NCBI GenBank assembly: GCA_022835595.1
Contig: BQUP01000004.1
Coordinates: 434,001 to 498,000, forward strand
DNA length: 64,000 nucleotides
Direction of reading: 5' to 3'
DNA from: Cystobasidium ongulense
Taxonomy: Eukaryota; Basidiomycota; Cystobasidiomycetes; Cystobasidiales; Cystobasidiaceae
Under the pieces are notes generated by a model. That model was not told the origin of the DNA, made no database searches, and saw only the letters and a program-made list of their open reading frames with translations. The translations under genes and the position numbers were made by a program. Position 1 is the first letter of the stretch, and the number at the start of each line of letters is the position of its first letter. Below are positions 1,805-4,791 of the stretch, piece after piece.

Positions 1805-4791
1805 ATGGTCACCAACGGCACCAACGGCAGCAGCAGGGCGATGTAAGTCGGCATCATCAATAATATAGTGCTGCACGTGTCCGCTAATTCGCGATGATTG
1901 TTCACAGTCAGCCATTTTCAACCTACTCCAGGATACAGGAGCTCACAGGCAAAGGCAGCAATGAAACCGCAGTCGTAGACGGTCACTCGCTCTCCATCGC
2001 CGACGTCGTCGCAGTCGCTCGTCACAATGTCCCAGCTCAAGCATCCACCTCCAAGGCTGTTCGTGATCGCGTCGACGCTTCGGTGGCGTTCCTGGAAAGG
2101 TGAGGGCGGCATATATGGCATCTACAGTGCACACTACTGACACATTTCGATGCTCTCTGCAGCAAGAAGCACATGTCCATTTATGGTGTAACCACCGGTG
2201 AGTAGACCCCACAATACCCTTTGTACCATTGAACCCCGACTGACAGCGGTCTAATCATACAGGATTCGGAGGTAGTGCAGATACAATAAGTTTGATTCGA
2301 TTCTAAACCATCATTACCCAAGCTCATAATCTATGCACAGGACTGGCGACTGGATGGCTCTTCAGGTCTCGCTTCTCGAACATCAGGTTAGTCGAAGAAG
2401 CTGGAAAGCTAGACCTAGATGTGATTCTGACTATGCCGATTCAGTTATGCGGATTCCTCCCAACTTCCGCCAGCTATGAGCAAATGTAAGCGTACTCTTC
2501 CCCAATTTCCCCCGTTCGAATTAGCCTAGCTGACTCTGTTTCCTCTAGGCTCATTCACGCCATGCCAATTCCAATCGTTCGAGGTGCCATTCTCATTCGT
2601 GTCAATTCGCTCGTTCGTGGTCATTCAGGTGTCCGATGGAAGGTACTCCAAGCACTCTTAAACTTCCTAAACAATGGACTTGTCCCTTGTGTTCCCCTTC
2701 GTGGATCTATTTCCGCTTCTGGAGATTTATCACCTGTAAGTTATTTCATCTGCCCATTAAGTTTCCTGTAGAGAACGCCACTGACTTAATATGTGAATTC
2801 GATATCCAGCTTTCATACGTTGCTGGAGCAATCTGCGGACACCCGGATATTAAAGTCTTTGAAACTTCAACCAAATCAATCCTTCTGGCTGAAGATGCTA
2901 TCGCCAAATATAACTTGGAGAAGATCGTACTAGGACCAAAGGAAGGTCTTGGACTGGTCAATGGAACCGCTTTCTCTGCTTCTGCTGGAGCAATGGCTCT
3001 TTATGACGCTGAGAATCTAGCGGCTTTGACTCAGACTACAACTGCTATGACTGTTGAGGCTAGTAAGTTCCCTCCTTCCTTTTCTGAGTCTAGCACTCGC
3101 AACTTGATGCTGACGAACTGGATTTCCATAGTGGTCGGGCATGTCGGATCTTTCGACAAATTCATTCATGATGTCACTAGACCACACCCAGGCCAGATTG
3201 AGGCGGCAAGAAACGTTAGAAACTTGCTAGCTGGTAGTAAATTGGCTGTTCACAGCGAGGATGAAGTCGCTTTGCAAGAAGACGCTGGTGTCTTACGCCA
3301 AGACCGATATGCCCTTCGAACATCAGGTTAGTCGAAGCTACATGCCGACCTTGCCGCTATGCTCTCATGCTGATGTGTGGTGGTAATTGTCCCAAAAAAG
3401 CTCAATGGATTGGACCCAATCTTGAAACTCTTGAACTTGCAAGACGTCAAATCGAAATTGAACTCAATTCCACAACTGATAACCCACTTCTTGATGTCGA
3501 AAACTCGCGTATCGCCCATGGTGGTAATTTCCAAGCTGTAAGCACGATTTTCAGATCTCGGTCTGCTTGTGTAATTTGAGAGCTGTTTGCTGAATCCTGT
3601 TGCGATGATCAGACTGCCGTCACTCAAGCTATGGATGCTACGCGCTTAGTCCTTGAGCATTTAGGAAGACTCTCTTTTGCTCAAATCACCGAACTTATCA
3701 AGTAGGCCAAAATCTACCGCCTGTTCGAGAGTCATTTCTGACTGATGATAACCTTTGCACAGCTGCGAAATGAATCGTGGTCTACCATCGTGCCTGGCTG
3801 GAGATGAGGTTAGTTTCTTCCCGGGAACATATAATAAGTGATAAAGTAGATTTACTGACTCTGCTCGAACCCCTATAGCCTTCTACAAACTACCACACCA
3901 AGGGTCTCGATATCCACAGTGCCGCATACACAAGCGAGCTCGGCTACCTTGCCAACCCAGTCTCTACGCATGTTCAGTCGACAGAGATGCACAATCAGAG
4001 TGTGAACAGTTTGGCTCTCATTTCTGCCAGAAAGACACTTGAAGCTTGTGATGTTCTGTCTCTAGTGAGTTAGCGCCATCTACTTCGACAAGCCATCAAT
4101 TGATTAACCAGTATCGCATTTTCAGCTCCTTTCTACTCACCTCTACTGCGCTACTCAAGCTATTGATCTCCGTATTATGGATCTCTCCTTCCAAGCCGAA
4201 CTCCGAACTTTGATGGACCGCTTGAACAAGCAGCACTTTGGCAGTCTCCTCTCTGGCGATGTCCTCTCTAAATTGAACAGGACTACTTTCACCGCCATCA
4301 TCAAGCGCCTTGAAGAAACTCCATCTTGGGATTCTGGAGCTCGCTTGGCCGATGCTGCCCGTCACATTGTTGGTCTTGTCGTCGAACATCTCGTTTCCAG
4401 CAAGGACGGCGTTAGTGCTCTTCAAAGCATCTCTGAATGGCAGAAGGAACTTACAGAGTCTAGTACCGAGTTGTATCGACGACTTCGATATGAAGCTACT
4501 TCTGGCAAGGACAATGTCGCTAAGGCGAAAGAATGCATGGGTCAAACTTTTGCAGTTTACTCTGCTGTGCGAAGCGAGTTTGGCGTCAGTGTTAGAAGAG
4601 GTGATGTTGCCGAGGGTAGACACCTTAAAAGCATTGGAAGTAGCGTCTCTGCTATTGTCGATGGTGTTAGGGATGGTCGAGTGCTGAGAGCTGTCGGACA
4701 AGCTCTCCATGTCCTCGAAGCGAAGGAATCTTTGGTCATTGCTAGTCCAACAGCAAAGGACAAGAAGAAGGATGGCCTCTTGTTCTATTAG
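1805..4791 (+). CDS. PAL: Phenylalanine ammonia-lyase
   Basis: The enzyme removes ammonia from L-phenylalanine (and in some fungi tyrosine) to give trans-cinnamate, opening phenylpropanoid breakdown; it is a cytosolic homotetramer. Fourteen exons join in frame to 711 residues, close to the usual fungal length of about 715. The exons are 1805-1842, 1908-2099, 2163-2197, 2263-2285, 2339-2386, 2445-2485, 2549-2735, 2810-3062, 3132-3326, 3401-3537, 3613-3701, 3763-3808, 3879-4064 and 4126-4791. Diagnostic motifs are [15 protein letters not shown] near residue 85, the MIO prosthetic-group triad Ala-Ser-Gly at about 182-184 inside [23 protein letters not shown], and STTDNPL. The fourth intron has AT...AC ends. 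The next gene downstream is carbamoyl-phosphate synthase, with no functional link evident. Tyrosine or histidine activity cannot be excluded by eye, but the family is certain. Confidence 0.95.
2286..2338 (+). other. AT-AC intron within PAL
   Basis: This 53-bp intron starts ATAAGT and ends TATGCAC. Removing it joins the codons for Ala-Asp-Thr to Arg-Thr-Gly-Asp-Trp, restoring the conserved PAL motif in phase 0; the whole 14-exon frame then closes. No GT donor paired with an AG acceptor here keeps the frame. The donor resembles the major-class consensus GTAAGT with A in place of the first G, not the minor-class ATATCC. A likely branch site, CTAAAC, lies at 2303-2308. Confidence 0.8.

What the first reader, a model, noticed from the sequence alone, without database searches (positions are those of the whole stretch)
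2286..2338. AT-AC intron with a major-class donor inside PAL
Seen: the intron begins ATAAGT and ends in AC, and only this cut keeps the conserved GSADTRTGDW segment and the whole 711-residue frame. Known: AT-AC introns with GTAAGT-like donors (first G replaced by A) are a rare class spliced by the U2 spliceosome, unlike minor-class ATATCC introns. Inference: a donor G-to-A change was tolerated by a matching acceptor G-to-C change. The site is in a highly conserved part of a metabolic gene.
Basis: partly seen in the sequence, partly recalled or inferred. Interest (0 to 1): 0.72.

Follow-up and report, generated by a model that had tools for sequence, protein, structure and literature searches.

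The report
Rare AT-AC intron in fungal PAL
One intron of a fungal phenylalanine ammonia-lyase gene appears to begin with AT and end with AC instead of the usual GT and AG, and at least four other conserved genes of the same genome seem to carry introns of the same kind, so this looks like a real, rare, already known class of intron rather than a reading slip.

Summary
In a hand-built 14-exon PAL model (711 residues, 505 bits to Pfam Lyase_aromatic), 12 of 13 introns are GT-AG. The fourth, 2286-2338, reads ATAAGT...GCAC. No GT-AG pair within 2263-2386 keeps the frame, and only AT-AC 2286-2338 keeps the conserved GSADT|RT. It is not alone: in four more genes (DnaJ, cyclophilin, serine carboxypeptidase, amino-acid permease) an ATAAGT...AC cut joins conserved protein motifs that the in-frame GT-AG/GC-AG alternatives damage; MATE and GST are weaker cases. 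U1, U2 and U6 candidates were found (all below family cut-offs); U12, U4atac and U6atac were not. Best reading: a major-spliceosome (U2-type) AT-AC intron, a known rare class (0.019% of annotated fungal introns in one survey). A simpler path fits PAL, DnaJ and cyclophilin: one GG deletion from ...AG|GTAAGT...ACAG| gives A|TAAGT...AC|AG with unchanged mRNA; the AC|GG introns cannot arise that way. A GG loss in the assembly at PAL alone remains possible but less likely. No RNA reads or related fungal genomes were available.

The parts
1805..4791 (+). phenylalanine ammonia-lyase (PAL) gene, ATG to stop codon; 14 coding exons, 13 introns, 711 residues
   Evidence: model (introns placed by hand); Pfam Lyase_aromatic 505 bits; PDB 1y2m E 2.6e-213; all five PF00221 matches of the genome lie here
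2263..2285 (+). exon 4, encodes (G)FGGSADT up to the AT-AC donor
2286..2338 (+). AT-AC intron, 53 nt, phase 0
   Evidence: only cut that keeps GSADT|RTGDW
2286..2291 (+). donor ATAAGT: equals GTAAGT except for the first base
   Evidence: ACTTAC at the 5' end of the U1 candidate in L008, read by eye on its minus strand
2303..2307 (+). weak branch-site candidate CTAAA (A at 2306, 32 nt before the last intron base)
   Evidence: read; not a CTRAY match; distance longer than the median of 20 nt in the 157-intron sample
2323..2327 (+). second weak branch-site candidate CTCAT (A at 2326, 12 nt before the last intron base)
   Evidence: read
2337..2340 (+). acceptor AC (2337-2338) directly followed by AG (2339-2340), i.e. 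ACAG, the commonest last four bases in the sampled introns of this genome
   Evidence: ACAG ends 42 of 157 sampled introns
2339..2386 (+). exon 5, encodes [16 protein letters not shown]
2290..2340 (+). nearest GT-AG pair (GTTTGA...CACAG); if used, the frame shifts and the protein stops after 163 residues

Best explanation
The PAL gene holds a genuine AT-AC intron removed by the major (U2) spliceosome. Inferred steps: U1 snRNA pairs with TAAGT at +2 to +6 (only the G1 pair is lost); a weak branch site is used; in step two the A at the first intron position is matched by the C at the last, so AC is chosen although AG lies two bases further on. The mRNA then encodes intact PAL. It is one of at least five such introns in this genome. 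Shown by sequence: frame and motif constraint, donor match to U1, recurrence in other genes. Not shown: splicing itself and its efficiency.
For: Frame enumeration and full model; conserved motif in the PDB PAL. Recurrence: DnaJ (L036, DFYEV|LGVPKDADD) and cyclophilin (L037, FMV|QGGDF); serine carboxypeptidase (L107, MCNY|LGNKEW; Pfam match spans residues 2-89, junction at 50) and amino-acid permease (L111; Pfam match 3-72, junction at 24, 2 bits under the curated cut-off). In-frame GT-AG/GC-AG alternatives within about 45 nt exist (PAL 1, DnaJ 5, cyclophilin 3, carboxypeptidase 5, permease 9) but, judged by eye, all delete or replace motif residues. Control with TTAAGT donors: 0 of 20 fetched loci showed a conserved junction by eye; 10 joined peptides from it gave no Pfam match better than E 0.026. 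U1, U2 and U6 candidates found, U12, U6atac and U4atac not. Precedent: AT-AC is described as the most efficient pair after GT-AG in yeast, with use in SUT635 and alternative use in RPL30 (passages of PMC6726248). A U2-type AT-AC intron competes with a nested GT-AG intron, 3' sites 3 nt apart, in an Arabidopsis reporter (passages of PMC5473141).
Against: No RNA reads. No related genome to show the site. The intron lacks a CTRAY branch motif and is the shortest of the 13 (53 nt against 58-75). A 2-base GG loss in the assembly would produce exactly this picture. The pattern ATAAGT-CTRAY-AC is not enriched as such: 49 YACG matches for ATAAGT and 23 for TTAAGT scale with the hexamers themselves (72 and 34 in 264 kb), so these introns are few. 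The carboxypeptidase has a near GC-AG alternative that changes CNYL to YT. The minor snRNA searches are weak negatives: the tool's control genomes did not ring, and U1, U2 and U6 also scored below their cut-offs. One survey did detect U12-spliceosome RNA genes in one fungus, Cutaneotrichosporon oleaginosum, and calls a minor spliceosome known in many fungi (PMC7072748, passages); that this species is a basidiomycete is recalled. The same yeast paper says no standard yeast intron normally uses AT-AC.
Confidence: 0.8

Rival explanations
1. Assembly or base-call error: the true sequence is ACAAG|GTAAGT...CACAG|GACTGG, an ordinary GT-AG intron, and two G were lost from the assembly.
For: The observed GATACAATAAGT equals GATACAAGGTAAGT minus GG, and CACAG is an ordinary acceptor of this genome (12 of 157 sampled introns).
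Against: Other AT-AC introns in the same genome cannot be explained this way: the permease intron ends CAACAC|GGG, with the nearest AG used in the enumeration 32 nt before and 41 nt after. Any AT-AC intron followed by AG would look like such a deletion, so the resemblance is not independent evidence. The assembly's error rate was not measured.
Confidence: 0.12
2. U12-type (minor spliceosome) AT-AC intron.
For: AT-AC termini; one fungus with U12-spliceosome RNA genes is reported (PMC7072748, passages).
Against: Donor ATAAGT instead of ATATCC; no CCTTAAC branch motif in the intron (motifs as given in PMC3033335, passages). U12, U6atac and U4atac not found. [quoted passage not shown]
Confidence: 0.02
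3. The GT-AG pair 2290-2340 or intron retention is used and PAL is broken, or regulated by nonsense transcripts.
For: GT at 2290 and AG at 2340 exist; Arabidopsis and yeast cases show AT-AC beside GT-AG splicing.
Against: Both give early stops (after 163 and 102 residues), while the rest of the PAL frame is intact over 711 residues and includes ASG, as expected under selection. GTTTGA is a poor donor by eye.
Confidence: 0.06

Closest known systems
U2-type AT-AC introns (SCN4A intron 21 type; PMC2831892, passages)
   Same: AT-AC ends, G at +5 of the donor, no U12 motifs
   Different: fungal, short (53 nt), no CTRAY branch motif; splicing not shown here. That the animal members carry ATAAGT donors is partly recalled
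AT-AC protointron of SUT635 and alternative AT-AC use in RPL30 of Saccharomyces (PMC6726248, passages)
   Same: AT-AC removed by the major spliceosome in a fungus, GT-AG sites nearby
   Different: there in a non-coding RNA or as an alternative; here AT-AC is the only cut that gives the protein
Arabidopsis GFP reporter with a U2-type AT-AC intron around a GT-AG intron (PMC5473141, passages)
   Same: only AT-AC splicing is translatable; a nested GT-AG nearby
   Different: reporter transgene; its 3' sites lie 3 nt apart with AC outside, whereas here AC lies 2 nt inside AG
AT-AC introns predicted in fungi by SnowyOwl, 0.03% of its introns (PMC4084796, passages)
   Same: AT-AC junctions in fungal gene models; one of the three species, P. 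chrysosporium, is a basidiomycete (recalled)
   Different: not sorted into U2 or U12 type in the passages seen

Membership tests
U2-type AT-AC intron | starts AT, ends AC | tested here: met
   only frame- and motif-keeping cut; TA-CA one base later is indistinguishable by sequence
U2-type AT-AC intron | U2-class donor (TAAGT at +2 to +6, pairs with U1) | tested here: met
   ATAAGT; ACTTAC at the 5' end of the U1 candidate
U2-type AT-AC intron | branch motif CTRAY (supporting, not defining) | tested here: not met
   no CTRAY in 2286-2338; weak CTAAA and CTCAT only. The other AT-AC introns found have CTRAY by design of the searches
U2-type AT-AC intron | spliced RNA; dependence on U1/U2/U6 snRNPs | not testable with these tools
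   no reads, no experiment
U12-type intron | donor ATATCC | tested here: not met
   donor ATAAGT
U12-type intron | branch motif CCTTAAC | tested here: not met
   absent from the intron
U12-type intron | minor snRNAs in the genome | tested here: inconclusive
   no match to RF00007, RF00619, RF00618; the tool warns that no control genome rang; RF00548 (U11) not searched
PAL (aromatic amino acid lyase) | family match and ASG (MIO-forming, recalled) | tested here: met
   505 bits; ISASGDLSP in the model

The most novel reading that the evidence does not exclude
In this fungus the major spliceosome routinely removes a set of AT-AC introns, and some of them (PAL, DnaJ, cyclophilin) were born in one step: deletion of GG from ...AG|GTAAGT...ACAG| leaves A|TAAGT...AC|AG, which AT-AC splicing turns into the same mRNA. 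This would bypass the simultaneous terminal mutations, or the descent from U12 introns, discussed in PMC2831892.
Probability: 0.25. Interest if true: 0.6.

Novelty: new member of a known kind. Interest (0 to 1): 0.4.

Why it matters
U2-type AT-AC introns are rare, and those of sodium-channel genes were proposed to come from U12 introns, being trapped because a terminal switch needs simultaneous mutations (PMC2831892, passages). A fungus in which no minor snRNA was found, but which holds several such introns in conserved genes, is a place to test direct birth from GT-AG introns. It also warns that gene models which force GT-AG will break PAL, DnaJ, cyclophilin and other conserved genes here.

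Tried and rejected
Coding-potential scan for further AT-AC introns in 264 kb: gave 0 hits even for GTAAGT-AG, so it was useless (scores too weak for the thresholds) and was dropped.

Relatives: the PAL search in viral contigs confirmed nothing; genome contigs (prokaryotes) was not searched; I had no fungal collection to search, so the ancestral state could not be read.

Candidate AT-AC loci rejected after looking over their flanks by eye, because a GT-AG cut fits better: L040, L049, L051, L068, L070, L088, L116. L045 rejected as not convincing (its Pfam match begins at the junction). MATE (L110) kept as weaker only: a GT-AG pair (GTGTAG...CTTAG) also keeps the frame, and its Pfam match (E 0.014, under the cut-off) begins at the junction. 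GST (L108) kept as weaker only: its Pfam match (E 0.00028, under the cut-off) lies downstream of the junction.

Splice-context comparison of two substitutions with a GG deletion: base preferences in the 157-intron sample do not separate them (by hand). About a third of that sample may be chance, since 37 to 42 of 366 to 418 sites with CT, TT or AT donors passed the same filter against 157 of 543 with GT. Count test: AC|AG gave 2 clear cases (all 48 matches looked over), AC|G gave 2 clear and 2 weaker; sampled exons start with AG in 9 and with G in 36 of 157, so there is no clear excess of AG.

Papers: the listing for AT-AC plus phenylalanine ammonia-lyase held four papers on plants by title, none on this (passages of one read). 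Searches on fungi, basidiomycetes and Cryptococcus: among the papers whose passages I read I saw no U2-type AT-AC intron described in a basidiomycete, but SnowyOwl gives 0.03% AT-AC over predictions that include P. chrysosporium; the others listed were not opened. PMC3091305 was a false lead.

Full report
What is there. Near its start the window holds a PAL gene, 1805-4791. I placed introns by hand and got 14 exons and 13 introns; the protein has 711 residues, scores 505 bits against Pfam Lyase_aromatic and matches the solved PAL 1y2m at E 2.6e-213. Twelve introns are GT-AG. The fourth, 2286-2338, is ATAAGTTTGATT...CTATGCAC. Enumeration of splice pairs between 2263 and 2386 gave no in-frame GT-AG pair; two GC-AG pairs keep the frame but delete conserved residues. 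The nearest GT-AG pair (2290-2340) gives a stop after 163 residues, and retention gives a stop after 102. The AT-AC cut restores GSADTRT, which is identical in 1y2m. A cut one base later (TA-CA) gives the same mRNA.

AC at 2337-2338 is followed by AG, and the donor side GATACAATAAGT equals GATACAAG|GTAAGT without GG. So one 2-base deletion, real or in the assembly, turns an ordinary GT-AG intron into this one, and AT-AC splicing then yields the same mRNA. This resemblance holds for any AT-AC intron followed by AG, so it is no proof. Base preferences in a 157-intron sample of this genome do not separate the deletion from two substitutions.

Is it a lone oddity? I searched the whole genome for ATAAGT, a CTRAY branch motif and ACAG (48 matches) and looked over the flanks of all 48. 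Two clearly join conserved proteins by an AT-AC cut: DnaJ (L036, DFYEV|LGVPKDADDAKI; Pfam DnaJ E 1.2e-6 across the junction) and cyclophilin (L037, FRVIKDFMV|QGGDF; Pfam E 2.9e-25 across the junction). A second search, with YAC followed by G, gave 49 matches. Forty loci were fetched, covering 41 matches; five further matches share a donor with the first set and were not re-read for this acceptor; three were not read. Two are clear: serine carboxypeptidase (L107) and amino-acid permease (L111), with Pfam matches across the junction at E 6e-11 and 1.1e-5, the second 2 bits under the curated cut-off. Two are weaker: MATE (L110), which has a frame-keeping GT-AG alternative, and GST (L108). For the five clear cases, in-frame GT-AG or GC-AG alternatives exist but, by eye, damage the motifs; the nearest is a GC-AG pair in the carboxypeptidase that turns CNYL into YT. 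Several other open-frame candidates were ordinary GT-AG introns.

Controls. With TTAAGT as donor there were 23 matches; 20 loci covering 21 of them were looked over and none joined a conserved protein by a TT-AC cut. Pfam on 10 joined peptides from them gave nothing better than E 0.026. This control is smaller than the AT sets. The raw counts show no excess of the AT pattern: 49 against 23 follows the hexamer counts, 72 against 34 in 264 kb. So these introns are few among chance matches. PAL itself would not have been found by the two searches, because it lacks CTRAY, so the true number is probably above five.

Which machinery. The U1 candidate (L008, minus strand) begins ATACTTACCTGG, complementary to GTAAGT. 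U2 and U6 candidates were found; all three lie below their family cut-offs. U12, U6atac and U4atac gave no match, a weak negative; U11 was not searched. The donor is not ATATCC and there is no CCTTAAC. [quoted passage not shown] another detected U12-spliceosome RNA genes in one fungus, C. oleaginosum (PMC7072748, passages). That this genome is a basidiomycete is my inference from the nearest solved PAL (from a red yeast, recalled) and the intron density; no tool named the organism.

Known background. GT-AG makes up 98.7% and AT-AC 0.019% of annotated fungal introns in one survey (PMC7072748, passages), and SnowyOwl reported 0.03% AT-AC (PMC4084796, passages). In yeast, AT-AC is described as the most efficient pair after GT-AG, with natural use in SUT635 and alternative use in RPL30, though no standard yeast intron uses it normally (PMC6726248, passages). 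The Arabidopsis reporter shows U2-type AT-AC splicing competing with a nested GT-AG intron (PMC5473141, passages). One study proposed that the U2-type AT-AC introns of sodium-channel genes came from U12 introns and are trapped, because switching needs simultaneous changes at the termini (PMC2831892, passages).

Verdict. Real AT-AC intron, U2 type, likelihood about 0.8; assembly error about 0.12; these are judgements, and the assembly's error rate was not measured. The class is known, so the novelty is that of a new member. The interest lies in recurrence within one genome and in a one-step origin that comparison with sister species could test.

Noticed in passing
2376-2397 and 3316-3337: A 22-nt identical block, TCGAACATCAG|GTTAGTCGAAG, spans the exon/intron border of PAL introns 5 and 9, in different reading phases and coding different conserved residues (LEHQ and RTS). 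A 15-nt part of it, TCAGGTTAGTCGAAG, was found only at these two places in the genome. The rest of the two introns is not clearly alike (47 of 500 shuffles score as high). Possibly a local copying or intron-transfer event.
   Followed up: partly
L036, L037, L107, L111 (and weaker L110, L108): Further ATAAGT...AC introns in DnaJ, cyclophilin, carboxypeptidase and amino-acid permease genes (weaker: MATE, GST) of the same genome.
   Followed up: yes
AT-AC introns of L036, L037, L107, L108, L110, L111: Five of these six have the branch motif CTAAY and one (L111) CTGAC, while CTGAY is commoner in the sampled GT-AG introns (108 of 157). Small numbers, two of the six being weaker cases.
   Followed up: no
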